A stretch of 64,000 nt of DNA from Terriglobia bacterium. Its GTDB lineage: Bacteria; Acidobacteriota; Terriglobia; Terriglobales; Acidobacteriaceae. The translations under genes and the position numbers were made by a program. Below the pieces are notes generated by a model, which saw only the letters and a program-made list of their open reading frames with translations, was not told the origin of the DNA and did not search any database. The stretch's first letter is position 1. Each line of letters begins with the position of its first letter. The stretch covers positions 62,001 to 126,000 of the forward strand of contig JAIQEU010000006.1 in NCBI GenBank assembly GCA_020073665.1. Reading direction: 5' to 3'. Positions 34,974 through 61,753 of this stretch are shown one piece after another.

Positions 34974-35034
34974 GACCTAACCATAGTACGGCGGAAGGAA
35001 TGTATGGCGAAAGGAGTTTGCCCTCCAAGTAGGT

Positions 35035-35062
35035 CGGACCGGACAACTAGTCCGATACGGAC
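35035..35062. promoter_or_regulatory. Cluster of CGGAC half-sites between aceB and aceA
   Basis: Within 28 bp there are four CGGAC copies: 35035-35039 and 35040-35044 (direct), 35050-35054 (inverted, GTCCG) and 35058-35062 (direct). The pair 35040-35054 makes CGGAC-N5-GTCCG, and AGGTCG (35031) / CGACCT (35067) bound the region. Its place midway between the divergent glyoxylate-shunt genes suggests an operator; the regulator is unknown. Confidence 0.4.
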
Positions 35063-35128
35063 GACCTTGTTTGCCAGGGCCGGCGGGAGCGGCTTTACTA
35101 GGTACTGATCCCACGGAGGGGACCAGTA

Positions 35129-36538
35129 ATGATGCGCAATTCAACAGCTCTTGAAATCGCCAATCAGTGGCGTTCCGAAGCCCGCTGGAGAGGTATCCAG
35201 CGGCCCTATCGCAGTGAGGATGTAGTCCGGTTACGCGGCTCCCTCCAGATCGAGCACACTCTGGCCCGGCAGGGCGCAGAGCGCCTTTGGGACCTCTTGC
35301 ACACCCAGTCGTACGTACCAGCCCTTGGAGCCATGACCGGCAACCAGGCCATCCAGCAGGTGAAAGCCGGGCTGCAGGCCGTCTACGTGAGCGGCTGGCA
35401 GGTGGCGGCAGACGCCAATGACTCCGGGCAGATGTATCCCGACCAGAGCCTCTATCCCGCCGACAGCGTGCCCAATCTCGTGCGCCGTCTCAATCAGGCG
35501 CTGACCCGGGCCGACCAGGTCCATCATGCGGAAGGCAAGAACGGAATCCACTGGTTTGCGCCCATGGTTGCTGACGCGGAAGCCGGCTTCGGTGGCAATC
35601 TGAATGCCTTCGAATTGATGAAAGCGATGATCGAGGCCGGTGCGGCTTGTGTCCACTTTGAAGACCAGCTTTCGTCAGCGAAGAAATGCGGTCACTTGGG
35701 CGGCAAAGTCCTGGTGCCGACCATGGAAGCCATCCAGAAACTGGTGTCGGCACGCTTGGCTGCCGACGTAATGGGCGTGCCTACACTCATCATGGCCCGG
35801 ACCGACGCCGACAGCGCCCACTTGCTGACCAGCGATATTGATCCCCGCGACCGCGAGTTCCTTACCGGCGAGCGGACGGTCGAAGGCTTCTTCGGCATTC
35901 GCGGTGGGTTGGATTCGGCCATTGCGCGCGCCATTTCCTACGCACCGTATGCTGACTTGCTGTGGTGCGAGACTTCGCATCCCGATTTGGACGAAGCGCG
36001 GAAATTTGCCGCAGCCGTGCACGCCAAGTATCCCGGCAAGCTGCTCGCGTACAACTGCTCGCCGTCGTTCAATTGGAAGCAGAAGCTGGACGATGCGACC
36101 ATCGCTCGTTTCCAGACCGAACTGGCGGCCATGGGGTACAAGTTCCAGTTCATCACCCTGGCGGGCTTCCACGCCTTGAACCTGGCCATGTTCGAACTGG
36201 CGCGCGGGTACAAAGTCTCGGGCATGACGGCCTATTCCCGGCTGCAAGAGAAGGAGTTCAGCCGCGAGTTTACTCACGGATACGAGGCGGTCAAGCACCA
36301 GCGCTTCGTGGGAACGGGGTACTTCGACACGGTCACGCAGGTGATCGCGGGCGGGACTTCATCCACCACGGCGCTCGCGGGATCCACCGAGGCCGAGCAG
36401 TTCGCGCAGATGAAGCCCCAAATACGCCCGGAAAGCGGTCCGGATGCGGCTTGCATGCCGATCCTCGGCGATTGCCCGCAGGTACCACTGACGGAGATTG
36501 CGATGCCTCCAGAGGAGCTATTACCTTCTGGAGACTAG
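35129..36538 (+). CDS. aceA: Isocitrate lyase
   Basis: The 469-residue protein has the catalytic KKCGH motif (C187 as general acid). Other family segments are [16 protein letters not shown], the Mg-binding region [12 protein letters not shown] (about 148) and [14 protein letters not shown] near the C-terminal third. It cleaves isocitrate to glyoxylate and succinate. A strong GGAGGGG sits just before the ATG at 35129; a second ATG follows directly. The length is that of the short bacterial form (E. coli 434). The stop overlaps the convergent PPTase stop by 4 nt. Confidence 0.97.
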
Positions 36539-37350
36539 ATACCTGTAAGTGTTAGCAGGATCGGCGGAGCCGGAGGCGGAGCGGCGACGATAGTCCGCAG
36601 GAGGCTCCCGGTCTGTTGCCACCAGCCGGAGAAGATCTGGCCGGCGGTATAGCGAACCTGCAGAGGGCACCAGGTATTCAGGCCGTATGACAGCGGAAAG
36701 GTGAAAGCGGAATCTTCAAGACATTCGTCTCCGCTTTCGCCTTCCCCCGGTAACGAATCCCAGGGGCTGACCCTCACACAGCGAGTGTCGAGCCGAAGCC
36801 CTGCTCGTAGCGCCTTGAGTGCGCTTTCCTTCCCGGTCCAGAGCAGAGTCAAGAGCCGCGGCCTTTCGGTCGCGGACGCTTGTGCAACCAGAGCCTGTTC
36901 TTCAGGTGTGAAGTAATCAGCGACAAACGCGTCGCTTCGCGGCTCGATCACTTCCAGGTCGCAACCCAATGCCACCGTGGACCGGGCGACGGCGCACACA
37001 GCGACCCCGGTGCAGTGACTGAGTGAAATAGTAACGGCCGCAGGTTGGTTGGCGATGAAGACCTCGGGCGCGCCGCACGTCGCTGGGCGTATTTCTATGC
37101 CAGCAAGAGCTTGGGGACGACAGAATTCATTCAAGCATGCAGCCACGGCAAGTTTCGCTGTCCAGCGACCCAGCCGCCAGTCAGCGCGGCGCTTGGCAAA
37201 GCGCATGCTGTTCAGGCGATCGGCTTCGCTCGCGCCGAGCCAATCATTTTCCACCGGCACATCCGCTTCGGATTGTTGCAGCCAGTACACGTCATGAAGC
37301 TTTGGCGGTGTCCTGAACCTCTCCGATCGCGTAGATATTGTCTCTGGCAT
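36535..37350 (-). CDS. 4'-phosphopantetheinyl transferase (Sfp/HetI type)
   Basis: The 271-residue protein carries the three hallmark motifs of Sfp-type PPTases: LGCDLEVIE (Mg/CoA-binding Asp and Glu), FTPEEQALV, and [11 protein letters not shown] with the catalytic Lys and Glu. It transfers phosphopantetheine from CoA to carrier domains. It is the last gene of the lipid-synthase operon, so its natural target is probably the four-ACP synthase encoded two genes upstream. ATG at 37350 gives the roughly 20-residue HetI-like lead before VYWLQQ and a 59-nt overlap with the carboxylase gene; GTG at 37290, 1 nt after the carboxylase stop, is the alternative. Longer starts lie deeper in the carboxylase. 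Confidence 0.88.
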
Positions 37351-40300
37351 TCTGGGTTTCCAGTTTCTCGGACTCCAATTTCTCGTCTCTCTCAATGCCG
37401 CGTTCGACCGCATGGATGAGGTAAGGACGAAGGTTCGAGGGCGGAATGATCTGGTCTAGCGCGCCCACTTTGAGGGCGCGATGTACGCTATGTATGCGGT
37501 CAAACTCGTCCGCCAGTTCGCCCAGTTTCTCGGAGTGGACGATTTTGAAGAGTTCGTCCCACAGGGCGCGCAAGCGGCCTTTCTCCACATTGTCGGCCTG
37601 AGCCATGGCTTGGCTCAAGGCTTGAAGGCGTGGGTCCTTGCGGGCCCTGGCATCGACCTCACTGGCGAAAACAACGGCGGCTGCCGGCGCGCCGCCAATG
37701 ACCGAGGCGTAGGTGCCTTCCAAAGCAACCACTTCCAGTTGCTGGTTCAGCGCCCGTGAGAAGACCACATAAGCGCCGCCGTGGTAGCGGGAGATAACGC
37801 AAAAGATCATGGGGCCTTTGAAGTTCACCACCGCCCGCCCGATCTCGGCGCCGTATTCCAGTTGGAGCTTGCGCATGGATTCCGGCGAGCCATCAAAGCC
37901 CGACAGGTTGGCCAGGATTACGACCGGCCGGTTGTGGCTGGCCGCGTTGATGGCGCGAGCTACTTTCTTGGACGAAAGCGGGAAAAGCGTACCCGCAGTC
38001 CATTGGTCCGGCCCGTCGGCGGGTACGAATCCTAGCCGCGGCACCGGCCGGGATTCGATGCCGATGAGGCAAACGGGATAGCCTCCCAAATGGGCGTCCC
38101 AGATCACAGCGATTTCCGCGGCTCGCATGCCGGGCCAGCGCTCCAGCGGAGCATGGTCCTGGTCGACCACCGCCATCATCACTTTGCGAATGTCGAAGGA
38201 TTTCTTCCGCGCGGGGTTGGTCTGGTCTGAGAAGATCTCACCCACTCGCGTAAATCCGTTGTCCTGCCCATTTCCGTGGGGATGGACTTGGACGTCACGG
38301 TCGAGGGGATCGATAGTCGCTGCCCGCCGAGGAAAGCGCTCGCCCGGGGCCAGGTAGGTGTGCTCATAGTGGCGCATGAGAATGTGGCAGGCTTCATCAA
38401 TGTCTCGGGCCCAGTATTGCGCCTGGCCGTTGAGACCCATGATGCGATCGTATCCGCCGATGCCCTGGTTGTCCTCGGCCGAGATGCTGCCCGAGTATTC
38501 CAGGGCGCGCTTGCCGGTCAGCACCATCGCGGCTTTGGGCGTCATCACCAGTATGCCGCGGGTGTGCATGAGCATGGTGGCCTCGGCGTTCCAGTAGGGC
38601 TGCGCCCCGACGTTGATCCCGTTCACTAACAGGTTCACTTCGCAGCCCGCCTGGGTGAACTCGATCAAACGACGCAGAACGCGGGCAATCCAATCCATGT
38701 TCTCCACGCCACTTTCCATGGAGATTTTCGCCCCAGCGGAGATGGGGAACCATTCCAGCGGCACACCCATCTCTTCCGCCAGGTCCAGGGCTGCGATGAT
38801 GCGCTGGCATTCGGGTTCGGCGAGGGCGCCCAGGTCCTTACTTGGGTCGCCGAGCAGCATGACCCGCATCATGCCCTCGGGATACTTGGTGGTGAAGTTG
38901 CGAATGACGCCGACGATGATGTTGGCTTTGTTTTGTCCATAGGGACGGTCGACGGGAACCAGGTGGCCCTCGGGGTCAAGGTCGTGCTCAACGAAATCGC
39001 CCGGGGGAAATTCGGCCCGCGTGTCGTCCAGGGCCGGGGTGAGCATCTTGATGATTTCGTAAGGGTAGATGAGTCCACGCTGGCGCATGCGGACGACTTT
39101 CTGGTCATATTCGGCCAGCGGTTTGAGTGGTTGTAGCTTGCTGGCGGGACGGAACGTCATGAGCAGGCCAGTGCCGCCCGGACTGGAGATGCGCACCACC
39201 ATATCGCGCAACTCGCCGGTTTCCGGACTGGGAATGCGGGCCCGCACCGCCACTTGTTCCAACCCCAGTCCTTCGGTGGCCGGGGCCAATTTGTGCACGA
39301 TATCGTGCAATTCATCCGGCTTGAGATTGAGTGGGGGCCACACGTACAGCAGGACCCGGTTCCAGTGGAGGCGCTCCTGGGGCCTTCGCCGTGATTGAAA
39401 CAGCCGAATGCTGGCCAGCGCTTCCATCAACATGCGCTCCAGGTGCGGCAGTTGCACGATGCGGCCCGCCTCATCCCGCACCGGTGTCAAATCGCGCACT
39501 TCCGCACAAGCGAACAGACGCTCATCCTTCGGGTTGTCGTGAGCGACGCCACGGAGCAGGTAGACGTCTTCGACCGAGGGCAGACGCTCTATCTTGAACT
39601 GGTTGAGCCTCCACAGGTGCAACCGTTTCCCTATCATCGGGTGCAGTCCACGGTAGAGCTTCTCTTCTTCATACGTGGTCCCACTGGGGCGATAGGTGAA
39701 ATGCTGCATGCCGCCTGTGCCTTGGCCGTGACCAGGGCTGGCGACGGCAACCACGATGCGCCGAATCGGGCGAGGGAAGGCGGCCTGATCGAGCATGGAT
39801 TGAACCTCCCGCTGCGTAGCCTCCGGATCGCCCAGAGAGCGGGCATGCCCAAGGTAAAGATCGATGACGATGTCATGATCCGCCGGTACTTCTGCGATCA
39901 AAGGAAATATCGCGCGCGCGGCCTCCACCAGTTGCGGGTATTCAGCGTGGGTAGTGAACACGTGGATGCGCTTGCCCTCATGGTCGTATTCGGCCGAGGC
40001 ATAGCAATGCCCGGCCAGCGTCAAGGTACGGAAACTCACCAGGGTTCGAATCCGATAGTATCGCCAGGTAAGCACCTCCAACATCAATTGCTGCAAAGCG
40101 GGACCCGCGGCTTCGAAACGGCCGGCGAACAGGCTCACCAGCGGCTGCGGGCATTCGACCAGAGCCCGTACTCGCTCGCGGCAGTCCGGGGCCTCGGGAT
40201 TGGCGGCCAGATAGGCCAAATCGTCTTCCACTTGTGCGTAGACCTGTTTGCGCGCCCGCTCAAACAGCGGTTGGTCGAAGTAGCGATATCGCACCTCCCG

Positions 40301-42943: not shown

Positions 42944-42985
42944 AAGCCCCCCGAGCAACCGAGCGTCACGGGTGATCACGCTGCA

Positions 42986-45900
42986 TCACGCCGTGACGGC
43001 TAGTAGTGACATGGCTTCTTGCAGTGCCTTCAAGGGTTCGGCATCTACGCCGTTGAGCAGAGCTACGGTGTGGTAGCCGCTGAGATGTAAGTAGTGGTTT
43101 CCCTTCGAATCGACAACCTCCGCATCGAAGGTTCCGTGATCAGGATACGGAATAACCACAGCATATAACCGGCCTTCAGCCAGATCCGGTGCGCGGAACA
43201 AGCGGACTTGATCAACGTGCAGCGGCAGGCCCATCCGGCCTTGCACACCCATCTCCCAGAGACCGGCGGTTTGAAAGCAAAGCTCGACCAGACGCGGCGC
43301 CAAAAGTGTCGGCTGCTCAGATGGGTGATGATTTGCGGGCAGGCCTTTGGCGAACAGGCCGACCACCCGGTTTCCGTCCCACCACGCCCGCTCCACCACC
43401 TGGTATGCGGGTCCGTGGAAGTAGAGGCGATAGATGTCGGCAGCTTCGATGATGGTTCCCGCCGGCGTGCCCAGTACCGCCGCAGCCACCGCTTTGGGCG
43501 GCTGTTGAGTGAGTCGCACGCGGGCTGTGAAGTGCGTGGTGATTTGCGGCTCCGCTTGATTCGGCAGTGAACGGTGGCCGGTCAAGCGGCAATCCGCTAC
43601 CAGCGCATCCCCTTGCGGACGAAACACCACTTCAACCGTCACCGCGCGTGGCTCGCTCCGGTAGAACTTGAACGGCGCCAGGAAGTTTACGTCGTTGATC
43701 GACTCGACATGCCAGCCGGGAATAATGCATTGAGCGGCTTCTGCAAAAGCCTCGATGCCCATCACACCGGGCAGCACCGGGGTGCCATCGATTTGATGAT
43801 CGTGCAGAAATGGTTGAACGGCGGGGTCAAGCGTGGCCTCGATGGTGAGGCCCCGGTCAAGGCGCATGCCGGTCAGCTTACCGAGCATCGGTCCTCTCGC
43901 CGTTAGCAGCGTTGCGCCGGAAGTCGCGGAGGTATCCAGCCCGCCGGTGGTGTCCCACTCGTTCAATAGGGCGCCAAGGCGCAGGCCGATGACAATCTCG
44001 CCCCGGGTCGCGCCGGTGGTGAGTTCCCGGCGGATTAAGGGAACGCCCGCTTCGGGCGGCAGCATGTCTATGCCAGCCAGTTCCATCATTTTGGGGATGG
44101 AACCGCGCGTGGCCATCCCAATGCCACCCCACGCTGTCCAGTCGATGGCGATGCCGCGGGTAGCCGGCCGGGTGGTGCGGAAGCTGGAAGTGATCTTGCA
44201 CAACAGGTCGTTGGCGGAGCTGTAGTCCGCTTGTCCTCCATTGCCGAAGCGGCCGGCGATGGAACTGAATGCCACGGTCGCTCCGAGAGGCATGTCGCCG
44301 ATGGCATGCAGAAGGTTGAACCAGCCGTCGCTCTTGACGTCGAAGACCAGATCGAATTCGCGCGGGTCCTTGTCCGGCAGGAAGTGACTGCGCTCCATGC
44401 CGGCCGCGTGCAGCAGCACGTCGATGCGCCCGCTGCGCTCGCGCACCTGGTTGATTACTTTGGCCACACCGTCGGCATCGGTGAGGTTAACGCTGCAGTA
44501 ATGCGCCGTGCCGCTGGCTGTCTGCACGGCCTGGATCGCGGTCTTAGCGGCATGCGCCCGCTCCAGGGCCGCCAGTTCCTTTTCCACCAGTGCTGGAGTG
44601 GCTCGCTCGCCGCGCGCCTGAATGCGCGCAAACAGGTCACGCTTGAGGCCGTCTTTGTCGTCGACGAAGCGATTGAGGTCGGGATTATTCGGGTCCGGCT
44701 CGGGCACCAAGTCAAGAAGGTAGAAGGTGCCTCCGGAGGCGGCTGCCAGGTCGGCGGTGATGGCGGAGACGATGCTTCCCGCCGCACCAGTGATCAGAAA
44801 GACAGTGTTCTGGTCCAGTTCGAGGCCGGGATGGCCGTCGGCCGCAGGCTGTTCTTCGAGGCCGATCGTCCAGCGCAGCCCTGCCTTGTAGCCGACCTCA
44901 ATCGCACCGGTGTCGCGCAGGGTTTCCTGGATGAGTATCTCGGCAAGATGGCCAGGCTTTTGCTCCACCTCGAAATCAACCACCTTGACGACGGCTTCCA
45001 TCCTCTCCCGCTTGTATGCCTTGGTGAAGCCCACGACCGCACCACCCAACGGAGCGACTGCCCCGGCTTGGTCGTAGCCGTGTTGCCCACCTAGCCGTGT
45101 TGCCGACACAAGAAATGTGCCCGGCGCGGCGATCTGCTCGTACAGGATTTGCATGGTCGTGTAAAGCGACTTAACACGGACTCCCAGAGCCTCATGCCAA
45201 GTTGACAGGTCCATGTCGCGCAGGCTTCCTTCCTGATCAAGCGCAGGCAGCCAGTAGATGCCGTGTATCGGGCCTGCTGCCATCCAGGTCTTGAGTTGTT
45301 GGGCGAGCTTGTGCCTGTCGGAGATGTTTTCAACGACGAGAACTTCCAGGCCCATCGCCTCCAGAAGCTCTGCCAATGTATCGGCGACTCCCCCTAGGTC
45401 AGGAACGACGACTACGCGGCGGCCGGCGCTCAGAGTCACTCCGGTTGGCTTGCAGATACTGAGGGCGGGACGCAAGGTCGGTACCGGCACACGGCGCGGA
45501 ATACGGTTCGCCGCATCAAAACTCGCAAGGACGGGACGCGGGCGCGCAATCGGTACCGCGACCGATGGTTGGGCCGCTGGCCTTTCCGTGGTCGCAGATT
45601 GTGTCTCCTGCGCCGCTGTGGGTGTGGGAATAGCTAGCGCAATTGAACCTGGCCGCCGGTCGCGTGCGAACTTGATCACCGATGCCAGGGTCGGGAAGTC
45701 GCGCAGCTTCATGTTTTCGTCGCGCGGAATGTTGTACGCGGCTCGCACCGCCGCGAACATTTCTGCCTGTTTGACGGTGTCGATGCCCAGGTCGGCTTCC
45801 AGGTCGAGATCCAGGTCCAGCATGTCTTTGGGATAGCCCGTCTTTTCGGCCACGATCTCCAGCACCTTCTCCTTAATACTGTCGTCCGTAATCACTTGGG

Positions 45901-48900
45901 CCACCGCGGGCACGGCTCCGGAGACGGGCACAGTTGCAGGAGCGGGGACTGGAGTAGTTGCGAGTATTTCGCTGCTCTTCGGCGGCGCTGGGGCCGCGCC
46001 CGCCAAATCAGGACGCTTCTCATACACGAATCGAATGACGTGTGCCAATGTTGGGTAATCGCGCAACTTGCGGTTCTCGTCACGCGGAATGTTGTAGATC
46101 TCACGAATGGCCGCAAACATCTCGGCCTGCTTGACGGTGTCAACGCCGAGGTCGGCTTCCAGATCGAGATCCAGATCCAGCATATCTTTGGGATAGCCGG
46201 TCTTCTCCACCATCAAGGCCAGGATGCGTTCTTTCACAGCGTCGCCGGCGCCTTTGGCAGCAGGAGTCACGGCAGGAAGCGGGGTGGTCAGTTTGATTTC
46301 TGGCTTCGCCTCTACTACCACCGGGACCGAAGTCGCAATCGCTAGGTCGGGGCGCTTCTCATACACGAAGCGAATGACGTGCGCCAACGTGGGATAGTCA
46401 CGCAACTTGCGGTTCTCGTCGCGTGGAATGTTATAGATCTCGCGGATAGCCGCAAACATTTCCGCCTGCTTCACCGTGTCGACCCCGAGGTCAGCTTCCA
46501 GGTCGAGATCCAGGTCCAGCATGTCCCTGGGATAGCCGGTCTTCTCCACCATCAGGGTCAGGATGCGTTCCTTTACAGCATCACCAGCGTCTTTCGCCAT
46601 TGCCACGGCAAGAGGTGGCATGAGTTTAATCTGTGGCTTGGTCTCTGCTACCGCCGGGGCTGAAGTCGCAACAGCCAGGTCGGGACGCTTTTCATGTACG
46701 AACCGGATAACGTGCGCCAGCGTGGGATAGTCACGTAACTTGATCTTGTCGTCGCGCGTGATGCCATACGCCTCGCGGATGGTAGCGAACACCTCGGCCT
46801 GCTTGACCGTGTCTACACCTAGATCTGCTTCGAGATCCAAATCCAGATCGAGCATGTCGACCGGGTAACCGGTTTTCTCCGCCACCAGGGCAAGTATCCG
46901 TTCTTTCACTGGATCGCCACCCGTAGCCGCCTTTGGTGGCGCGGTGGCTGCGGGCTCTACGACTGCAACCCTCACGCTCAATTCCGCGGCTGGGGGCGCT
47001 GGCCGCGCAGGTTTTGTCTCCATAACGGTCGTGGCCGCCGGAGCCGCCGGCACAACGGGCGCTGGCGCTGCGGTCCTCACCTCGACCACCGGTGAGGGTG
47101 CCGGCGTTGAAACCCGTGCTGGTGCCGGACGCACATCCTGCGCAACCTGGGCGGCTCGCGCCGCCGCCACTTGATCTTTCACTCGCAGGGTGCGGTGGAC
47201 GACTTCCAGATCGGCGACCGGGTGACCGGCCATTCGCTCTAGCCAGGCGTTCCAGGCGTTCGTATCGGCAATGCGATAGGAATAGCCCAGGGCGTTGGGG
47301 CTGCGACGGACTCCATCTTTCGTTTTGACCCAACGCAACAGCGTCATGCTGATCTGGGAACCGAACCCGGCACCCAGGTGCAATGCGTACTCGACGGGAT
47401 AGGCGCCCCCCTTCGATAAGTTCAAAGGGCCCAACTCGGGATCGATTTCCTTGAAGTTGGCTACTGGCGGCACACATCCAGTTTCCAGCGCCTTTACCGC
47501 CACGACATCTTCGATCCCGGTCGCCATGGCGTGACCAGTGAAGCCCTTGGTGTTGGCGATCACGATGCGGTCGGCGACGTCGCCGAAGACACGGCGCAGC
47601 GCGTGGATCTCGGCGGAAGCACTGCCACCGCGGGCGGGAGTGTAGGTTTCGTGGGAAACGAAAACTGTCTGCGGTGCGATCTGCCGGCGTGAAATCCCGT
47701 TGCGCGCCTCCGCTTGGGCGATCAGGTTCTCCATCACCTGGCCGATGTGCTGGACATCGAGACGCGTGCCGTGAAAAGCGCTATTCGCGGTCACCGAACT
47801 CAACACCTCGCAGATCGGCTGGATTCCGCGTTCGCGCGCCGCCTCCGCGCTCTCCACCACCAACGCCGCGGCACCCATGCCAATGATCAAACCGTGCCGT
47901 CGGCGATCGAAGGGGATGGCAGCCTCTTCGACTACTTCGTCGGTAGCGGCTGCTCCGCTGGCCAGGAAACCGGCGCCCATCCATTCCAGCAGATGGTCCG
48001 AGGTCACGTCGTCGGCGGAGATCACGATCACTCGCCTGCACCGCCCGGCGTGGATCCAGTCTTCCGCCAGCGCGATGGCCTGGGTGGTAGTGGCGCAAGC
48101 GGAGTTGATTTGCGAATTGGGGCCACGGGCGCCAATAAATTCGGCAAACTGAGAATGTCCCATCGCCAAGGTTCTGAGCAGGAAGCGCCGCTCGAAGACG
48201 TACGGTTCCTTCTCGATGGCGAGGCGCACCTCGTTGATGCGGCGGTCGATCTCCTGCACCAGGGTGGAATGTCCATTGCTCTCCACCACCCGGGCACGCA
48301 CGCTTTCCAGCGTGGCCAACTGCTCGCGGCGGGCGTGGTCGGCGTAGTAGCGCCCCATCTCATCCGCGAACGAGTCGAGACCGGGGAAGGCCGAGGCAAA
48401 AATCACTCCGGTGTCGTCGCGCATGGCGTCGGGCAATCCCCAGCGATCCGGCAGCTGTGTACCTTTGCTCGTAGTCTTGTAGCGCATCACCAGCGGGACG
48501 CCGGCATCGCGTAAGGCGTCGATACCCGCCGCGATCGCCAGTTGAGTAACGCGGTCGAGAGCGGCCAGGCGATCCGCGGGAACTCCGAACTCACTTTCCA
48601 GATCGAAGATACCTCCACGCCCCGCCAGTTTGATGACGTCCGCCAGGCTGCTGAGGGACTCAAATGTGGGCCCTCCGTTGTCGCTCTTGACCAGGCGGGT
48701 GATGTGTTTGTCGAGCATCGCGCTGCGGAATCGTGTTGGAATCGCATCGATGAACTGCTCGCCCCGCAGGATACGGCTTACGTTGTCATCATCGAAGATG
48801 CGTTCAGTTCCCGGCAGACCCAAAGCCGCACCGGTAATCACCACTGGCAGCTTATTTGTCCCGTCGTTCTTGCCGTGGTAGATCTGCCAGCCGCGTTCGA

Positions 48901-51900
48901 GGACATCGGCGAACATGCGGCCGAGCTCGGCGTAGCGATCGCCAGTGAGGGCTGCGGCGGGCGTGCGGGGCTCGGCTGCCGCAGCGGCCACGACCGTAAT
49001 TGGTTTGAAAGTTTCGGCCGACAAGGGAACTGCGGACACAGAAGTCACCGGTTTGGCCGGGACCTCGGCGACGCCGCGGCCCAAACCCGCGGCATAAAGC
49101 GCGCACAGCGCCTGGTTGAATGCGGGGATGTCGCCGACCTTGGGGTGATTCGTGAAGAGCGAAACCACATCACCGTGTTCGCTGAGCACATCTTCAGCAA
49201 ATCCCTGCAGCGCCTTCTTCGGACCGACTTCAACAAAGACGCGTGCGCCCGCCTCATACAGCGTTCGCAGACCCTTGACGAATTGCACAGGAGATGCGAC
49301 CTGCTGGGTGAGGATGTCCAACATCTGGGGCACGACATCCGGCCCCATGGGATAAAACTCACCATTCACATTGGCTACGATCGGCAAGCGAGGCGATTGC
49401 AGATGCAGGCGCTCCAGTTCCTTGCGCAGCGGCTTGCTGGCGCCCGCGACGATAGAGGTATGGAAGGCGTGACTGACCGGGATTGCCACCGGGTCATAGC
49501 CGGCCTTTTGGAAGCTTTCCATGGCTTGTTCGACCGCCTGGCTGGCGCCGCCGATAACTCCCTGGCCGTTGCTGTTGACGTTTGCGATCACGACGTAACC
49601 GTCGATGGTCTTCAGGATTCGCTCGATTTCTTGCAGCGGTGCAAACACGGCCGCCATCTTGCCGTTGTCTTTCATGGCCACGGCGGTCATGCCGCGACCG
49701 CGGGCGCTGACCGCCTCCAACGCGTCATGGAAGGGAAGAGCGCCGGCAGCGACGAGGGCTCCGTATTCGCCCAGGCTGTGCCCCATTGTCATGTCGGGCA
49801 CGACGCCGTAAGCGGCGAGGAGGCGGGTGAGCGACTCGTCGGTAGCTAGGACGGCTGGTTGAGTAATTTCGGTCTGGCGCAGATCTTCTTCGGCCTTAGC
49901 CACCGCGTCGGGGTCGGCCTGGTCAACAAAAATAAAGTCGGTGAGCGGTTTGCGAAGCAGAGGTGTCATAATTCGATCCGCTTCGGCAAAAGTCGTAGCT
50001 ACAATCGGCTCAATGGCGCGAAGGGGCTCGAGCATGTTCACGTACTGCGAACCTTGGCCGGTATAAAGGAATGCCACCTTGGGCGCCAGACCGTGACCGC
50101 GGAAGATGCCTTGCGCGCGTAGAGCCTTCCAGATTGGCGCTTGGTCTGCCGCCAGGGCTTTGAGCGCTTTGGCGGACTTGTCCGCCAGGTCCGCGGCGTC
50201 GGCATAGTCGATCACCAGGCGCTCGGGGGCGCGCAGATCCGCCTCAGTTGGTGCAGTTGGTGCGGGTGCAAGGCCCTTCTCGGCAGCCTCGTGCACCGAG
50301 CTTAGACGCTCAGCCAGAGCGGCCCCGGAGTTGCTGCCGATTACCAGCGCGCCGCGCAACGGCGCCTTGCCGGAATAACCTGCAGGCGCAGTGTGAGAAC
50401 TTTCCATGGCATTCATGCTTCCCTCGTGTACCACTGCGGGCGGTATTTCGCCGACCGCGATCGACCGTTTGCCGTTTCCGTTCAGCTTGTGCGGAATGTA
50501 TTCCTCGAGTACGGCGTGGAAGTTGGTGCCGCCAAAGCCGAACGCGCTGGCGCCGGCGCGCCGCACGCCATCCGCTGGGACGATCCAGGGCTTCAGTTCG
50601 GTGTTGACGTAGAGCGGGGAGTGGGCAAAGTCGATATCGGGGTTGGGATGCTCGCAATGGACGCTGGGTGGCAGCACCTTGTCGCGCAGTGCTAGTGCGG
50701 TCTTCAGCAATCCGGCAGCGCCAGCGGCCCCTTTGAGATGTCCGATATTCGACTTGACCGAACCCAGTGCCACCGAACCGCCAGGCAGATGGAAGCTGCT
50801 GAGCACATCCGTCATGCTTTGCACTTCCACGACGTCACCCACGCGGGTTGATGTGCCGTGGCCTTCAATCATGGTGACAGTAGCAGGCGACAGGCCGGCA
50901 TTCTCCCAGGCGCGCTCGATGGCCAATTTCGGACCGACGGGGTTGGGTGCGGTGATGCCTTTTCCTTTGCCGTCGCTCGACCCGCCCATGCCTCGCAGGA
51001 CGGCGTAAATCTTGTCACCGTCGTGCTCGGCGTCGGCCAGACGCTTAAGCACAAAGATCGCAGCGCCTTCACCCATGACGAAGCCGTCGGCTCCTTCGGC
51101 ATAAGGACGAGTGCCGGTTGCCGAGAGCGCACCGATCTTGCTGAACTTGATGAAGGTAGACGCGCCCATGTTGCGGTCAATGCCGCCGCTGATGGCCACG
51201 TCAAACTCGTGGGCCACTAACCCTTCGATCGCTGAGCTCATGGCGGCCATCGCCGACGCGCAGGCGGCGTCGACCACGTAATTGGGGCCGTGAAAATTGA
51301 AAACGTTGGCGATGCGGCCGGCAATGCAGTTGGCCAATTCGCCGGGCATGGTGTCTTCGGTGACTTGGGGAAGACGCATGCCCATCCGATCATGCAATTC
51401 GCGGGTGATCTCGCGGCGCACCGCCGCTGGCAGCGCAATGAAACTGGCACTCTCCTCCAGTTCATGGGCGTATTCGGGAAAGTACAGTCGCAATATGGTG
51501 AAGTAATGTTTTTCTCCACCCATGGCATTGCCCAGGATCACTGCCGTGCGATCGGTGTTCAGCGGCCGCTGCGGATAGCCGTAGTCCTGCAAGGCTTCGC
51601 GGGTACACGCGATGCCCCATTTTTGTGAGCCGTCCATGCCCTCGACCACGCGCGGCGGGATCGGCAAGTGCCATGCCATGGGGTCCCACACGTGCTCGCG
51701 CACCCAGCCGCCAATCTTGGAGTAGGTCTTGTCCGGCGCGCTGTGATCGGGATCGTAGTAATACGCGGGGTCCCAGCGGTCCGGCGAGACCTCGCTGATG
51801 CTGTAACGGCCGTTCTTCAGGTTTTCCCAGAAGGCGGCTACGTTCGGGGCGTCGGGCAGCACAGCTCCGGCCCCCACGATCGCAATTGCTCGATGAGCTG

Positions 51901-51910
51901 TGTTTTCCAT
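42986..51910 (-). CDS. Iterative PfaA-like lipid/polyketide synthase, KS-AT-KS-ACPx4-KR-DH
   Basis: Domains of the 2974-residue protein: KS1 about 8-475 (C217 in DAACAS, H351 in GHGTST, H391 in SNIGH); malonyl-type AT about 610-940 (S712 in GHSLGE, HAFH at 814-817); atypical KS2 about 1020-1530 (C1272 in SACATTT, H1420, H1460 in FTGH); four ACPs about 1668-1750, 1780-1857, 1893-1970 and 2013-2095; KR about 2370-2610 (S2550, Y2563 in ADYSSAN); hot-dog DH about 2695-2960 (H2705 in HQIDGTPVLP). No enoyl reductase or thioesterase is present. KR-site segments such as SSIAGRFGNGGQADY resemble PUFA-synthase PfaA. In every ACP the attachment residue is Thr (LGVDTVKQ or LGIDTVKQ). AGGAG precedes the ATG. 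The product is probably a long, partly unsaturated or hydroxylated acyl chain. Confidence 0.93.
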   Translation of the reverse strand: MENTAHRAIAIVGAGAVLPDAPNVAAFWENLKNGRYSISEVSPDRWDPAYYYDPDHSAPDKTYSKIGGWVREHVWDPMAWHLPIPPRVVEGMDGSQKWGIACTREALQDYGYPQRPLNTDRTAVILGNAMGGEKHYFTILRLYFPEYAHELEESASFIALPAAVRREITRELHDRMGMRLPQVTEDTMPGELANCIAGRIANVFNFHGPNYVVDAACASAMAAMSSAIEGLVAHEFDVAISGGIDRNMGASTFIKFSKIGALSATGTRPYAEGADGFVMGEGAAIFVLKRLADAEHDGDKIYAVLRGMGGSSDGKGKGITAPNPVGPKLAIERAWENAGLSPATVTMIEGHGTSTRVGDVVEVQSMTDVLSSFHLPGGSVALGSVKSNIGHLKGAAGAAGLLKTALALRDKVLPPSVHCEHPNPDIDFAHSPLYVNTELKPWIVPADGVRRAGASAFGFGGTNFHAVLEEYIPHKLNGNGKRSIAVGEIPPAVVHEGSMNAMESSHTAPAGYSGKAPLRGALVIGSNSGAALAERLSSVHEAAEKGLAPAPTAPTEADLRAPERLVIDYADAADLADKSAKALKALAADQAPIWKALRAQGIFRGHGLAPKVAFLYTGQGSQYVNMLEPLRAIEPIVATTFAEADRIMTPLLRKPLTDFIFVDQADPDAVAKAEEDLRQTEITQPAVLATDESLTRLLAAYGVVPDMTMGHSLGEYGALVAAGALPFHDALEAVSARGRGMTAVAMKDNGKMAAVFAPLQEIERILKTIDGYVVIANVNSNGQGVIGGASQAVEQAMESFQKAGYDPVAIPVSHAFHTSIVAGASKPLRKELERLHLQSPRLPIVANVNGEFYPMGPDVVPQMLDILTQQVASPVQFVKGLRTLYEAGARVFVEVGPKKALQGFAEDVLSEHGDVVSLFTNHPKVGDIPAFNQALCALYAAGLGRGVAEVPAKPVTSVSAVPLSAETFKPITVVAAAAAEPRTPAAALTGDRYAELGRMFADVLERGWQIYHGKNDGTNKLPVVITGAALGLPGTERIFDDDNVSRILRGEQFIDAIPTRFRSAMLDKHITRLVKSDNGGPTFESLSSLADVIKLAGRGGIFDLESEFGVPADRLAALDRVTQLAIAAGIDALRDAGVPLVMRYKTTSKGTQLPDRWGLPDAMRDDTGVIFASAFPGLDSFADEMGRYYADHARREQLATLESVRARVVESNGHSTLVQEIDRRINEVRLAIEKEPYVFERRFLLRTLAMGHSQFAEFIGARGPNSQINSACATTTQAIALAEDWIHAGRCRRVIVISADDVTSDHLLEWMGAGFLASGAAATDEVVEEAAIPFDRRRHGLIIGMGAAALVVESAEAARERGIQPICEVLSSVTANSAFHGTRLDVQHIGQVMENLIAQAEARNGISRRQIAPQTVFVSHETYTPARGGSASAEIHALRRVFGDVADRIVIANTKGFTGHAMATGIEDVVAVKALETGCVPPVANFKEIDPELGPLNLSKGGAYPVEYALHLGAGFGSQISMTLLRWVKTKDGVRRSPNALGYSYRIADTNAWNAWLERMAGHPVADLEVVHRTLRVKDQVAAARAAQVAQDVRPAPARVSTPAPSPVVEVRTAAPAPVVPAAPAATTVMETKPARPAPPAAELSVRVAVVEPAATAPPKAATGGDPVKERILALVAEKTGYPVDMLDLDLDLEADLGVDTVKQAEVFATIREAYGITRDDKIKLRDYPTLAHVIRFVHEKRPDLAVATSAPAVAETKPQIKLMPPLAVAMAKDAGDAVKERILTLMVEKTGYPRDMLDLDLDLEADLGVDTVKQAEMFAAIREIYNIPRDENRKLRDYPTLAHVIRFVYEKRPDLAIATSVPVVVEAKPEIKLTTPLPAVTPAAKGAGDAVKERILALMVEKTGYPKDMLDLDLDLEADLGVDTVKQAEMFAAIREIYNIPRDENRKLRDYPTLAHVIRFVYEKRPDLAGAAPAPPKSSEILATTPVPAPATVPVSGAVPAVAQVITDDSIKEKVLEIVAEKTGYPKDMLDLDLDLEADLGIDTVKQAEMFAAVRAAYNIPRDENMKLRDFPTLASVIKFARDRRPGSIALAIPTPTAAQETQSATTERPAAQPSVAVPIARPRPVLASFDAANRIPRRVPVPTLRPALSICKPTGVTLSAGRRVVVVPDLGGVADTLAELLEAMGLEVLVVENISDRHKLAQQLKTWMAAGPIHGIYWLPALDQEGSLRDMDLSTWHEALGVRVKSLYTTMQILYEQIAAPGTFLVSATRLGGQHGYDQAGAVAPLGGAVVGFTKAYKRERMEAVVKVVDFEVEQKPGHLAEILIQETLRDTGAIEVGYKAGLRWTIGLEEQPAADGHPGLELDQNTVFLITGAAGSIVSAITADLAAASGGTFYLLDLVPEPDPNNPDLNRFVDDKDGLKRDLFARIQARGERATPALVEKELAALERAHAAKTAIQAVQTASGTAHYCSVNLTDADGVAKVINQVRERSGRIDVLLHAAGMERSHFLPDKDPREFDLVFDVKSDGWFNLLHAIGDMPLGATVAFSSIAGRFGNGGQADYSSANDLLCKITSSFRTTRPATRGIAIDWTAWGGIGMATRGSIPKMMELAGIDMLPPEAGVPLIRRELTTGATRGEIVIGLRLGALLNEWDTTGGLDTSATSGATLLTARGPMLGKLTGMRLDRGLTIEATLDPAVQPFLHDHQIDGTPVLPGVMGIEAFAEAAQCIIPGWHVESINDVNFLAPFKFYRSEPRAVTVEVVFRPQGDALVADCRLTGHRSLPNQAEPQITTHFTARVRLTQQPPKAVAAAVLGTPAGTIIEAADIYRLYFHGPAYQVVERAWWDGNRVVGLFAKGLPANHHPSEQPTLLAPRLVELCFQTAGLWEMGVQGRMGLPLHVDQVRLFRAPDLAEGRLYAVVIPYPDHGTFDAEVVDSKGNHYLHLSGYHTVALLNGVDAEPLKALQEAMSLLAVTA
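45626..46909 (-). repeat. Four tandem acyl-carrier-protein repeats inside the synthase gene
   Basis: Four units of about 240 bp are separated by Ala/Pro/Val-rich linkers. Units 2 and 3 (centred near 46.45 and 46.11 kb) differ at only two of 77 residues, which points to recent duplication or gene conversion. All share LDLDLDLEADLG followed by V/I-DTVKQAE. Confidence 0.9.
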
Positions 51911-51987: not shown

Positions 51988-53667
51988 TCAGGCGACTGAC
52001 TTCAATTGCTTCGCCACGCGGTTGTAAAGTACGTCGGCTACGTAATCCATGTCGGAAATCAGACCGGCCTGGGCGCGGTGGATGGCAGGCAGCCCCAAAC
52101 TAGTTTCAAACGCCGCCATCTCCGCATCGCTTACGGCACTGGCCCCAGCGACCCAGCGCAGACCTTCTTCGGCTACCTTGAGCGCCGCCTCGCGGGCGAA
52201 GATTCGGCCCAATGCGGCCAGTGCCGTCGCGTCGAAACGCGTGCTGGCTTTTGGGTTGAGCTTGCCTTCCGCCATCAGCCCAGCACGGCGCGACAAACTG
52301 CCGGCGCACTCCGCGTACGCGATCAACTCGCCCAAGCGCAGGAGAATGTGCTGGTGGCGGGTCAGGTGCGCAAGCCGCGCCTTCTCCATTACTTCGGCCA
52401 GGGCGTGCAAGCTCAGTGCGGCCATGTTCGCGCCCACGTCCGGATGCTGCGCGTGCAGCGCCTCGAACTTGCGCGCTTCCTCGTGATAATGCTGCCCGCG
52501 GGTTTTCAGGTGGAACTGCCAGCGGTCGCGGCTGATGGTCATCTCCATAATTTCGGAGGTGCCTTCGTAAATGGTGGTGATGCGAACATCTCGGCTGATC
52601 TTCTCCACCATGTACTCGTGGGTGTAACCATAGCCACCAAGCGCCTGGATGCTGGCCTCAGCAGCGGCATTGCCCGCCTCAGTCGCCATGTACTTGGCGA
52701 TGGCGCCTTCGGTGTTCAGGCTCCCTTCAGCTCCACCATCGATACGCTCAGCCGTCTCTTCAATGTAGGCGCGGGCGGCTTCCAGGTGGGCGACGTGCGG
52801 GACGATGAGCTTGTGCGTGTACCCCTGTTTTTCCGAAAGCGGCGCCCCGGCCTGAATACGCTTGGTGGAATAAGGAATTGCGCGGTCGAGCGCGGCCCAG
52901 CCTGCCCCGAGGCCAAATGCCGCCACCATCAGGCGGGTGTACCCGAACACGGCCTGCGCCTGGTTCAATCCCTGGCCTTCTACTCCGCCGATGAGCCGGT
53001 CAGCGTCCACATAGACGTCACTAAACGCAAGCGCCGCGGTGTTGCTGAGCCGAATGCCATGCTTGTCTTCCGGTTCGTCGTGGTTGAAACCCTTTGCGCC
53101 CTTCTCCACTACGAACCAACTGGGGCCGCTGGGTGTGTTAGCCAGAACCGTATAGAGGTCAGCGATCCCGCCATTGCTGATCCATTGTTTATTGCCATTG
53201 ATCTTGTAGCCGACGACTTTTCCGTCCTGCATGACTCGGTCCGCCGTCGTTCGAAGGGCGCCCAGGTCGCTGCCCGCTTCCGGCTCGGTTGCGCCGTAGG
53301 CGAACAACACTCCTTCGTCCGCGATGCGACTTAACCAGAGTTTCTTTTGTTCCGGCGTGGCCCCAACCGTGATTGGGTCGCTACCTAGGAAGGTGGCTAG
53401 CACCGCCGTGGCCACGCCGAGGTCGATATGCGCCATTTCTTCGCAAATGCAGTAGACGTCGAAGGCGCCGCCACCCATTCCGCCGAACTCTTCGGGAATG
53501 AACAGCAGCTGAATGCCCAGCTTGTCGGGGCTGCACATGTGCCGCACGATCTCGAGCGGGCATTCGTCGCGTTCATCCAGTTCGATCAGGGTTTCGTCCG
53601 GCAGACGTTTCTTGGCGAAGTCCCGGAGCGACTTCAAACTTAACTTGAGTGTCTTGGGAGCAATCAT
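51988..53667 (-). CDS. Acyl-CoA dehydrogenase family flavoprotein (long form)
   Basis: The 559-residue protein has the ACAD fold: the FAD/substrate loop [13 protein letters not shown] (about 120), [20 protein letters not shown] (about 335) and the IYEGTSEI segment (about 360), where the catalytic Glu of many ACADs lies. A helical extension of roughly 180 residues follows, as in long-chain-type and ACAD9-like enzymes. It should oxidise an acyl thioester and hand electrons to the ETF encoded directly upstream. ATG at 53667 is chosen because GAGGA precedes it; a GTG at 53682 overlaps the etfA stop. It is followed 77 nt later by the synthase, so it probably acts on that product or a precursor. 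Confidence 0.9.
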
Positions 53668-53678
53668 TGGCGGTGTCC

Positions 53679-54665
53679 TCACTTTGCTGAAACGGTTCGC
53701 ATTTCGCGGACTTTGTTGGTGAATTCCGGTAAGAACTCCAGCAGGTCGTCGACAATTCCGACATCGGCCACCTGAAAGATCGGGGCTTTGGGATTCTTGT
53801 TGATGGCGACGATGAAGGGGTTGCCCTTAATTCCGGCTAAGTGCTGGAACGCGCCGCTGATGCCGCATGCCAGATAAACCTTGGGTTTAACAGTTTTTCC
53901 CGATGTTCCCACCTGGCGGGACTTCTCCAGCCACTTGGCGTCGACCACCGGTCGAGAGCAACTCACAGCGGCACCAAGCGCCTCCGCCAGTTCTTCGGCG
54001 ATGGCGACGTTGTCTTTCTCCTGAATGCCGCGGCCGATAGAAACCAGGACGTTGTGCTTGGTGATGTCTACATCCCCAGCTTCGGCGACGACGGTTTCCA
54101 GATAGCGTCGTCCAGCGGCTAGCACACCAACGTCGGACGACATGTCGACCACAGATCCTTTGACAGGTGCAATCTCCAGTGGCTTGAATGCGCCAGGACG
54201 TATGGTGATTACCGCGCCAGAAGAAATGTCACAGCGGACATGCGCGCTTACCTGCCCACCAAATTCCTGGCGGACTACTTTGAGGTGGGAACCTTCGACT
54301 CCGTCAATGCCCAACACGTCGGAGACGAATGCCGACTTCAGCTTGATGGAAAGGCCCGGGGCCAGATCAATTCCGAAGTGCTCATGGGAAACCAACAAGA
54401 TGCTGCCTTGCGGCAGGACCTTTACCAGCGCTTTCCGAACCAGTTCGGCGTTGGGGTAGGCAAAGGCTTCGTTGGCGATCTTCCAGACCTCACTATAGGA
54501 AGCGCGGAGGGTGCTGCAAACGGCATCAAGGTCCGCACCCCAGCCGGTGACGATGGCGGTAAGGGACGCGGCGGAATCAATCTTGCTGGCTGCGGTCAAC
54601 AACTCAGCCGCAGAATCGTCGGCCACGCCGGCCTTATGAACGATGTAGGCGAATATGCGAGCCAT
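53679..54665 (-). CDS. etfA: Electron transfer flavoprotein, alpha subunit
   Basis: At 328 residues this is normal for EtfA. The C-terminal FAD domain signature [16 protein letters not shown], followed by [11 protein letters not shown] and VADVGIVDD, is clear. With EtfB it takes electrons from the acyl-CoA dehydrogenase and passes them to the membrane oxidoreductase encoded first in the operon. The ATG overlaps the etfB stop by one base and GGAGG precedes it. Confidence 0.96.
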
Positions 54666-55456
54666 TATTTCAACCCTCCTTTGGCTGCTACGAGCTCGAC
54701 TAGTTTTTCGATGATCTCTTCCCGGCTGCCTTCCAGCATCTCGGCTCCCTTGCCCAGCGCAGGCACGAAGTAGTCCACCCGCTTTACTTTCGCGGCAGTT
54801 GTTCCTACCGAGCCTGGGTCAACCCCCAGGTCGGACGCAGCGAAAGTTGGAATGGGGACCGAGGCCACTTGCCGGATGCCCCGCATGCCCACATAACGCG
54901 GCTCGTTGATGCCAGTCTGAATCGAGAGCACGCAGGGAAGATCGATTTCACTGATCTCCTTGTTGCCGCCGGCGATTTCCCGGCTGATCTTCAACTTCTT
55001 GCTGTCCAGGACTTCAATGGAGTTGACCAGCGAAGCGAACGGGTAGTCGAGCATCGCCGCCAGCATTCCACCCACCTGGGCGCCGCCGTCTTCGGCTTGG
55101 ACTCCGGTCAGGACCAGGTCGTAGTGCCCCTTCCGCACGAAGGCTGCCAGGATGGTTGCGATACCCCTGCCGTCCGAGCCGCTGAAGGCGTCGTCGGAAA
55201 TCAGCACGCCGTGGGTCGCGCCCATGGCCATTTCCCGGCGCAAGATTTCTTCGTCGTCTTCGCCGCCCACCGTAACCACCGTGACGTTTCCACCGACTCG
55301 GGCGACAATCTGAAGGGCCTCTTCAACCGCATAGTTGTCCCACTCATTGATCGAATACACCAGGTCGTCGCGCTCGATGTCGTTTCCCGCGCTATTGAGT
55401 TCGATCTCGTTTTCCGAAGTGTCGGGTACTCTTCTGGCACAAACTAGAATCTCCAC
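54665..55456 (-). CDS. etfB: Electron transfer flavoprotein, beta subunit
   Basis: The 263-residue protein starts VEILVCARRVPDT, the usual EtfB N-terminus, and contains NEWDNYAVEEAL and the AMP/FAD-loop region LVLTGVQAEDGGAQVG. The GTG start at 55456 has GGAGG 8 nt upstream and lies 2 nt after the stop of the membrane oxidoreductase gene; a longer frame to 55495 runs back into that gene. No features that would mark it as a bifurcating EtfB can be asserted from sequence alone. Confidence 0.95.
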   Translation of the reverse strand: MEILVCARRVPDTSENEIELNSAGNDIERDDLVYSINEWDNYAVEEALQIVARVGGNVTVVTVGGEDDEEILRREMAMGATHGVLISDDAFSGSDGRGIATILAAFVRKGHYDLVLTGVQAEDGGAQVGGMLAAMLDYPFASLVNSIEVLDSKKLKISREIAGGNKEISEIDLPCVLSIQTGINEPRYVGMRGIRQVASVPIPTFAASDLGVDPGSVGTTAAKVKRVDYFVPALGKGAEMLEGSREEIIEKLVELVAAKGGLK

Positions 55457-55458
55457 GT

Positions 55459-57708: not shown

Positions 57709-58220
57709 GGTGGTGCCTTTCTAGACTATGAACGGTCGAGGTTCGTACGGCAGAACCCTACGGACCGGACCCTGCGGGACTCCCGTGCAATTCCTAAGAG
57801 TCCCAAAAGAAAGGTGAGCGACTTGGCACCGAGTCGTGCCCGCATGACAACCGATGGACTCCCGCCGCCTAGTTGCGAAGTGATCTCTGTAATCGTTCCG
57901 GCGATCGCGGAGAATGGGAAACGCACCAAGTACAACTGCGCCACAGACCATGTGCGGGCTGCCTCCTCGCTCAACGGCAGCACCCCTGGGGAGGTGCTCC
58001 TGACGGTTGCAATTGGAAGTAGCGACCCGGGAGCCGAGTAGCATTCCACCCGGCTTATCGTACTTTCAAATTATGCTTTTACCGACCGGCTATAGTCTGT
58101 GAGGCGCAGCGGTATCGGTTGTGAGGCACATCACACGCAGCAGTGGCAGCAGGCGTCCATTCCTTCCGACTGCGTATTAGACACCGCGCAAATTGTTTTT
58201 CGCCGGATTGGTGAAACCAG
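57709..58220. other. Intergenic region, probable promoter of the synthase operon
   Basis: In this 512-bp gap I find no supported gene. It contains a CRP-type site at 58120-58135 and a second TGTGAGGC word at 58099-58106. Short frames on both strands look non-coding. Confidence 0.5.
58120..58135. promoter_or_regulatory. CRP-type operator (TGTGA-N6-TCACA)
   Basis: TGTGA GGCACA TCACA matches the CRP consensus exactly. It lies 411 bp upstream of the oxidoreductase ATG at 57708 and 85 bp after the end of the GMC gene, so it is distal if it serves the ETF-synthase operon. Confidence 0.5.
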
Positions 58221-59924: not shown

Positions 59925-59925
59925 A

Positions 59926-61563: not shown

Positions 61564-61753
61564 GGCAGCCCTCCTTCGACGGACAGGCGGTTGTGCCCCA
61601 TCTTCGCGGGGCATTTCCAACCAGCGGGGACGCGTCACGGAAAACACATTCCCACTCAAGGTTAGGCAGACGGCAACACGGAATGCGGTGATGCCTGACT
61701 ACTATGTCTGTGACGTTGCGAGGGGAGGTCGATCACGGAACCTGCTCGTGGTT

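What the first reader, a model, noticed from the sequence alone, without database searches (positions are those of the whole stretch)
45626..46909. All four carrier domains have Thr at the phosphopantetheine site
PfaA-type carrier domains read LG-x-D-S at the attachment site. Here all four read LG(V/I)DTVKQ, with Thr at residues 1701, 1812, 1925 and 2045. Four independent losses are unlikely, and the KS, AT, KR and DH active sites are intact, so the synthase is probably active. Either Thr is modified by the PPTase of the same operon, or the chain is carried in another way.
Basis: partly seen in the sequence, partly recalled or inferred. Interest (0 to 1): 0.85.

Follow-up and report, generated by a model that had tools for sequence, protein, structure and literature searches.

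The report
Fatty-acid synthase carriers with threonine
A bacterial enzyme that builds fatty-acid-like chains appears to hold the growing chain on a threonine where the carrier domains of related enzymes use a serine; its relatives share this, so it looks like a real and old variant of a very basic piece of biochemistry that has not yet been tested at the bench.

Summary
The 2974-residue synthase at 42986-51910 (-) has four carrier domains, all LG(V/I)DTVKQ, with Thr at the phosphopantetheine position. It is not decay. In a census that did not require Thr, 39 loci had only Thr carriers (124), 16 had only Ser carriers (39), none was mixed. Every Thr codon is one base from Ser, yet no reversion was seen. 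Thr goes with Gln at +3 and Ala at +4 (117 of 117); Ser goes with Arg and Val/Ile/Leu/Thr (39 of 39). An actinobacterial orthologue has one carrier, with Thr. KS1, AT and DH-His residues are kept in 23 of 23 full-length Thr synthases. The PPTase coded beside the synthase is found in the same 17 of 399 class genomes as the synthase and in none of the other 382. The cluster fits 'Type R' secondary lipid synthases (2011), product unknown; threonine is not mentioned there. Best reading: the cognate PPTase puts 4'-phosphopantetheine on Thr. That is inference: E. coli ACP S36T is reported as not modifiable, so a specialised PPTase, or no modification, must be told apart by mass spectrometry.

The parts
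42986..51910 (-). PfaA-like iterative synthase, 2974 aa: KS-AT-KS2-ACPx4-KR-DH
   Evidence: Pfam/NCBIfam (TIGR02813 omega_3_PfaA 1005.9 bits, just under its 1010.1 cut-off); ORF
46676..46927 (-). carrier domain 1, Thr1701 (codon 46808-46810 ACG)
   Evidence: PF00550 35.4 bits
46343..46594 (-). carrier domain 2, Thr1812 (codon 46475-46477 ACG)
   Evidence: 26.4 bits
46004..46255 (-). carrier domain 3, Thr1925 (codon 46136-46138 ACC)
   Evidence: 26.7 bits
45644..45895 (-). carrier domain 4, Thr2045 (codon 45776-45778 ACC); the AlphaFold model starts a helix at this Thr
   Evidence: (30.4 bits)
50501..51892 (-). first ketosynthase KS1 (C217, H351, H391), limits approximate
   Evidence: conserved 23 of 23
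49178..50071 (-). acyltransferase AT (S712, H817)
   Evidence: 23 of 23
47096..48688 (-). second KS-like domain (limits approximate), with C1272, H1420, H1460 kept
   Evidence: 22 of 23, the exception being the distant L077; the position called CLF in the Type R description
44126..44569 (-). ketoreductase KR (Y2563, N2567)
43049..43891 (-). dehydratase DH (H2705, E2876)
36535..37413 (-). 4'-phosphopantetheinyl transferase; the ORF overlaps the carboxylase end and homology begins near residue 40, so the true start is probably downstream
   Evidence: PF01648
37292..42979 (-). fused biotin carboxylase / biotin carrier / carboxyltransferase, between synthase and PPTase
   Evidence: an ACC gene is reported between the pfaA and pfaE homologues of Koribacter
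51988..53682 (-). acyl-CoA dehydrogenase-like protein, also beside the synthase in Nonomuraea
53679..54665 (-). electron transfer flavoprotein, FAD-binding (alpha-type) subunit
54665..55495 (-). electron transfer flavoprotein, beta-type subunit
55459..57708 (-). 4Fe-4S / cysteine-rich (CCG) protein
58221..59924 (-). GMC oxidoreductase
59926..61659 (-). wax ester synthase / diacylglycerol acyltransferase

Best explanation
This is a Type R-like secondary-lipid (PfaA-like) synthase whose carriers have switched, probably once and long ago, from Ser to Thr as the attachment residue. The PPTase of the same cluster transfers 4'-phosphopantetheine from CoA to that Thr, giving O-phosphopantetheinyl-threonine carriers. 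Malonyl units, perhaps supplied with help from the adjacent carboxylase, are loaded by the AT and condensed by the KS; KR and DH act on the tethered chain as in other PfaA synthases. Shown here: the Thr, its fixation, the coupled T-Q-A motif, the intact catalytic residues, and the PPTase co-occurrence. Inferred: the chemical modification, its donor, the direction of the switch and the product. A further inference is that Thr (one extra methyl) goes with the smaller Ala at +4, one helix turn on and at a position reported to matter for Sfp, so that carrier and PPTase fit each other and the other PPTases of the cell are kept off.
For: Fixation: 124 Thr against 0 Ser in 39 Thr loci; 39 Ser against 0 Thr in 16 Ser loci; no mixed synthase. 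Codons ACC 58, ACG 57, ACT 7, ACA 2, each one base from Ser. On a KS tree of 25 Thr synthases the last carrier's codon needs at least 8 changes, all synonymous. The label Thr/Ser changes once on a KS1 tree of 41 rows (support 89) and once on a PPTase tree (40 labelled of 43 rows, support 97). T(0)-Q(+3)-A(+4) in 117 of 117 Thr carriers with a full segment, S-R-[V/I/L/T] in 39 of 39 Ser carriers. The Nonomuraea orthologue has a single carrier, with Thr. KS1 C-H-H, AT Ser/His and DH His 23 of 23. PPTase (E <= 1e-15) in exactly the 17 of 399 class genomes with the Thr synthase, and present on a different contig in G051 where the contig with the synthase shows none. Carrier model: a helix begins at the Thr, and the 50 listed solved matches have TM (by query) 0.65-0.84. 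Invariant Thr/Tyr side chains of Thr carriers other than the site are also invariant in Ser carriers.
Against: E. coli ACP S36T is described as unable to receive 4'-PP and non-functional (PMC3340395, passages). The PPTase co-occurrence is partly trivial because the genes are usually neighbours, and 'this PPTase' is defined by a score threshold: the PPTases of the distant Thr synthases score only 2e-11 to 4e-15. Ser loci also carry related, more distant PPTases (7 of 16). The Nonomuraea PPTase lacks the His of the S-x-(S/T)-H motif. One L024 carrier lacks the site. G090 gave no PPTase match (81% complete). The KS1 tree is a quick one with long branches and no root. No direct chemical evidence.
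Confidence: 0.72

Rival explanations
1. The Thr carriers are never modified. They keep the ACP fold as docking or structural units, and the chain is carried as CoA thioester or on a Ser-type ACP acting in trans (the genome has several free AcpP-like ACPs).
For: E. coli ACP S36T is not modified. The genome holds free Ser ACPs (C11, C21, C10:460357). The cluster has an acyl-CoA dehydrogenase/ETF set that would normally act on CoA esters.
Against: No Ser carrier lies in the window. A docking unit would not need the attachment residue kept through at least 8 synonymous codon changes, with no drift to Ser, Ala or Gly in 124 carriers. A PPTase is kept with it. Copy number 1-6 per synthase fits a working carrier array.
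Confidence: 0.13
2. Thr carries something other than 4'-phosphopantetheine, for example a phosphate, a different CoA-derived arm or an O-acyl group, so the chain is held by a different chemistry.
For: The co-changing +3 and +4 residues alter the surface next to the site.
Against: The KS, AT, KR and DH active sites are the ordinary ones for thioester-bound chains, and the PPTase keeps the G-x-D-x-E and W-x-x-K-E residues (alignment, read by eye; motifs recalled).
Confidence: 0.05
3. Ordinary variation: PPTases of this subfamily accept Ser or Thr alike, and Thr is a neutral founder substitution with no functional meaning.
For: Only one change of label is needed on the trees, so the trait may have a single origin and could be inherited passively.
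Against: Thr to Ser is a single-base change from every Thr codon, yet 0 of 124 carriers show it; Thr goes with Q+3 and A+4 in 117 of 117.
Confidence: 0.1

Closest known systems
Type R secondary lipid synthase cluster (Shulse and Allen 2011, PMC3098273; section 8 and found passages read)
   Same: KS-MAT-CLF-ACP(3-6)-KR pfaA homologue followed by a PPTase gene; Acidobacteria among the hosts; in Koribacter an acetyl-CoA carboxylase gene lies between the two, as here.
   Different: Thr is not mentioned ('threonine' 0 and 'serine' 0 occurrences in the main text). Here the CLF position keeps C-H-H, a DH follows the KR, and an ACAD/ETF/FeS/GMC/WS-DGAT set lies upstream.
PfaA omega-3 PUFA synthase (TIGR02813)
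   Same: Tandem ACPs after KS-AT, then KR; the carriers share TGYP and E-A-D-L-G-x-D with Ser carriers of PfaA-like synthases.
   Different: Scores 1005.9 against a cut-off of 1010.1; a second KS stands before the carriers; carriers have Thr-x-x-Gln-Ala instead of Ser-x-x-Arg-Val.
Sfp-type PPTases
   Same: PF01648, with G-x-D-x-E and W-x-x-K-E (motifs recalled).
   Different: No solved structure matched by sequence (E <= 0.01); tracks Thr carriers; these carriers have Ala at +4, the TycC3 PCP M49 position, where Ala was expected to hamper Sfp (PMC11744666, passages).

Membership tests
Type R secondary lipid synthase | one pfaA homologue KS-MAT-CLF-ACP(3-6)-KR | tested here: met
   with the reservations that the CLF position has an intact C-H-H triad and that a DH follows the KR
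Type R secondary lipid synthase | PPTase gene downstream, P1b' motif hShxH | tested here: met
   window PPTase has ISLSH; gene order synthase, carboxylase, PPTase
Type R secondary lipid synthase | groups with named Type R members in a KS tree | tested here: inconclusive
Omega-3 PfaA (TIGR02813) | curated score cut-off | tested here: not met
   1005.9 against 1010.1 bits
Carrier protein (PF00550) | fold, and score over cut-off | tested here: met
Carrier protein (PF00550) | Ser as phosphopantetheine attachment residue | tested here: not met
   Thr in 4 of 4 window carriers and in 124 of 124 carriers of the 39 Thr loci whose site could be scored; one more (L024) lacks the site
Carrier protein (PF00550) | is phosphopantetheinylated | not testable with these tools
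   needs mass spectrometry

The most novel reading that the evidence does not exclude
O-phosphopantetheinyl-threonine is a natural protein modification: a whole lineage of iterative synthases in at least two phyla, with its own PPTase subtype, runs on Thr-anchored carriers that are chemically and sterically orthogonal to the Ser carriers of the same cell.
Probability: 0.65. Interest if true: 0.85.

Novelty: new variant of a known kind. Interest (0 to 1): 0.72.

Why it matters
Ser is taught as the attachment residue of acyl, peptidyl and polyketide carriers (general knowledge), and Ser to Thr has been used in E. coli as a dead-carrier control. A natural lineage that uses Thr would show that PPTase chemistry can move to a secondary alcohol, would break motif-based annotation (carriers scored as inactive for lack of Ser), would offer an orthogonal carrier/PPTase pair for labelling and synthase engineering, and would give a handle on a lipid synthase type listed with uncharacterised product in 2011.

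Tried and rejected
Decay or pseudogene: rejected (open frame; conserved catalytic residues). Sequencing or assembly error: rejected (39 loci). Non-standard code: ACG/ACC/ACT/ACA are Thr in the table used and the frame is ordinary. Another residue taking over: over the stretch compared by position (-34 to +13) the invariant Thr/Tyr/Lys side chains of Thr carriers besides the site are T-21, Y-19 and K+2, all also invariant in the 39 Ser carriers; the C-terminal Thr (T69 of alignment A2) is invariant in both kinds. A Ser carrier elsewhere in the cluster: none by PF00550 in the window. The Thr motif in viral contigs: 0 matches.

Papers: seven searches aimed at Thr carriers or the motif showed no title or abstract start reporting a Thr-anchored carrier; one search listed 20 of 110 papers and these were seen as listings only, apart from the papers named. 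Three more were on the synthase family; one search listed 10 of 1502. The library holds open-licence papers only. The E. minutum genome paper is not held.

Reach: taxa beyond Acidobacteriota were seen only through the plasmid collection. Of 4 records two were opened, and of 44 three more (L055, L082-L085: one Thr, four Ser); the rest were not opened. The single genome-contig scan returned 7 loci, with titles naming Acidobacteriota groups only.

A result that looks contrary: in the alignment of 23 full-length synthases the four window carrier columns hold a few gaps and three cells that are not Thr (A, R, R). Arrays of 1-6 copies do not align column by column; the domain-wise census has Thr at every site that could be scored. 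I did not trace those three cells.

Failed for plain reasons: wrong frame; wrong file name, nothing printed; one sequence given.
Full report
OBSERVATION. The ORF at 42986-51910 (-) codes for a 2974-residue synthase. Pfam finds two KS stretches, AT, PP-binding, KR and DH. Its four carriers read LG(V/V/V/I)DTVKQ with Thr at 1701, 1812, 1925 and 2045, codons ACG, ACG, ACC, ACC, and there is no LGxDS. Each carrier alone passes the Pfam PP-binding cut-off, and the Thr falls on the Ser of PigH and bacterial ACPs.

SURROUNDINGS. On the same strand lie a fused biotin carboxylase/carrier/carboxyltransferase (37292-42979) and a PPTase (36535-37413) downstream; upstream are an acyl-CoA dehydrogenase, two ETF subunits, a 4Fe-4S/CCG protein, a GMC oxidoreductase and a wax ester synthase/DGAT. 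The four genes acyl-CoA dehydrogenase, synthase, carboxylase, PPTase stand in this order in the window and nine other loci (L022-L025, L055, L063, L115, L117, L118), Nonomuraea (L055) included. In others the stretch fetched is too short, or the PPTase follows the synthase with no carboxylase between (for example L056, L058, L059, L061, L062). The seven relatives found with the whole synthase are Acidobacteriota by title.

CENSUS NOT REQUIRING THR. Homologues were found with the KR-DH end only, which holds no carrier: 26 of 297 phylum genomes and 27 of 399 class genomes, the two samples overlapping. Of 60 loci, 56 had at least one carrier hit: 39 Thr only (124 carriers), 16 Ser only (39 carriers), none mixed, and one (L070) with a carrier cut before the site; one further carrier, in L024, lacks the site. 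The four without a hit were L027, L074, L080 and L129. Thr loci include orthologues at 49-78% KR-DH identity and three more distant synthases (29-33%; L073, L075, L077) with DT(I/V)KQAQ; Ser loci lie at 25-33%. Counting distinct 84-residue segments, there were 107 Thr and 38 Ser (which left out the window and two loci).

SELECTION. Thr codons are ACC 58, ACG 57, ACT 7, ACA 2. All are one base from a Ser codon. On a KS tree of 25 Thr synthases the codon of the last carrier needs at least 8 changes, all synonymous. If changes fell evenly over the three codon positions, about two thirds would alter the residue; eight of eight synonymous would then have a chance near (1/3)^8, about 0.00015 (my arithmetic, rough, ignoring mutation bias). 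The Thr site does not vary alone: positions 0, +3, +4 are T, Q, A in 117 of 117 Thr carriers with a full segment, and S, R, V/I/L/T in 39 of 39 Ser carriers.

ONE ORIGIN. On a KS1 tree of 41 synthases the Thr/Ser label needs one change (support 89; quick tree, L073 and L077 on long branches, root unknown). On a PPTase tree of 43 rows (40 labelled) it also needs one change (support 97). So a single, old switch without reversal fits this sample; its direction is not shown by the trees and is inferred from Ser being the general state.

THE SINGLE-CARRIER ORTHOLOGUE. Nonomuraea gerenzanensis (Actinomycetota) has an orthologue, 52.5% identical in KR-DH, with one carrier only, LGVDTVKQ, followed by the carboxylase and the PPTase. 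There is no spare Ser carrier in that protein by this HMM; a carrier in trans is not excluded.

PPTASE. In the same 399 class genomes the Thr synthase (E = 0) is in 17 and the PPTase (E <= 1e-15) in the same 17, none of the other 382. The ten weaker synthase hits are Ser synthases in nine cases; in the tenth (G614, L129) no carrier was found. In 33 of 39 Thr loci a PPTase is in the stretch fetched. Of the six others, G601, G562 and G051 hold it on another contig, G069 on its other contig (L080), G090 gave no match (81% complete), and L026 is a contig that ends too early. In G051 the contig goes on past the carboxylase, by my estimate about 5 kb, with no PPTase, so there it seems unlinked yet present. 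The PPTases of the distant Thr synthases are weaker matches to the window's (2e-11 to 4e-15) but fall on the Thr side of the PPTase tree. Of 16 Ser loci 7 have a more distant PPTase hit (E 4e-34 to 5e-8 with the profile). The window's genome has three PF01648 genes in all. The link is partly expected from gene order and is not proof of specificity.

ACTIVITY. KS1 C-H-H, AT Ser and His, and DH His are identical in 23 of 23 full-length Thr synthases. KS2 C-H-H is kept in 22 (L077 has A, R, R), KR Tyr/Asn in 22 (exception L073), the KR Ser in 20 (L058 Cys, L077 Ala, L073 gap) and the DH acidic residue is Glu in 21 (L077 Asp, L073 Pro). So the exceptions lie in the two distant synthases, apart from one KR Ser. 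The carrier model (mean pLDDT 86) begins a helix at the Thr; the best solved matches are ACPs, apo and holo (best E 2.3e-4).

MECHANISM. Most likely the cluster's PPTase transfers 4'-phosphopantetheine to Thr. The steric idea (Thr plus Ala at +4 instead of Ser plus Val) is my inference: a paper names TycC3 PCP G42, L46 and M49 as crucial for Sfp (counted from its Ser45, recalled, these are -3, +1, +4) and expects Ala at the M49 position to hamper it (PMC11744666, passages only). Thr carriers keep Gly at -3 and Val/Ile at +1 but have Ala at +4. Against a general ability: E. coli ACP S36T is said not to be modifiable (PMC3340395, passages).

KNOWN OR NOT. The cluster fits Type R of Shulse and Allen (PMC3098273; section 8 and found passages read), including the carboxylase gene between the two in Koribacter. 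The words threonine and serine do not occur in its main text. Searches for Thr-anchored carriers or the DTVKQ motif found none, in an open-licence library only. So the family is known, its product was listed as uncharacterised, and the Thr attachment site appears undescribed in what I could search.

SCORES. The sequence fact is solid. The chemical claim is likely but untested.

Noticed in passing
window 47096-48688: The domain at the position called chain length factor in the Type R description keeps a full Cys-His-His triad here and in 22 of 23 full-length Thr synthases, the window included, so it may be a second condensing enzyme rather than a CLF; in the distant L077 the triad reads A, R, R.
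   Followed up: partly
window 51988-61659: Upstream acyl-CoA dehydrogenase (best NCBIfam model acryloyl-CoA reductase, below its cut-off), ETF subunits, CCG iron-sulphur protein, GMC oxidoreductase and wax ester synthase suggest reduction in trans (no ER domain was found in the synthase) and a wax-ester or similar neutral lipid as product.
   Followed up: partly
L024, fourth carrier of the synthase: One of five carriers lacks the stretch around the attachment site: either a natural site-less carrier or an assembly collapse in the repeat.
   Followed up: no
L055 PPTase (near 22322, +): The Nonomuraea PPTase has SLTD where the others have S-x-(S/T)-H or similar; the usual His is missing.
   Followed up: no
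L057, L064, L066, L067, L070, L071, L113: Contigs begin or end inside the carrier array, so carrier numbers from draft genomes are lower limits.
   Followed up: partly
window 33429-36538: Malate synthase (-) and isocitrate lyase (+) lie next to the cluster; a glyoxylate-cycle pair beside a lipid cluster.
   Followed up: no
own genome contigs C26, C31, C43: Several NRPS-like carriers of the GGHSL type with Ser, with another PPTase on C26: a Ser-carrier system in the same cell against which orthogonality could be tested.
   Followed up: no
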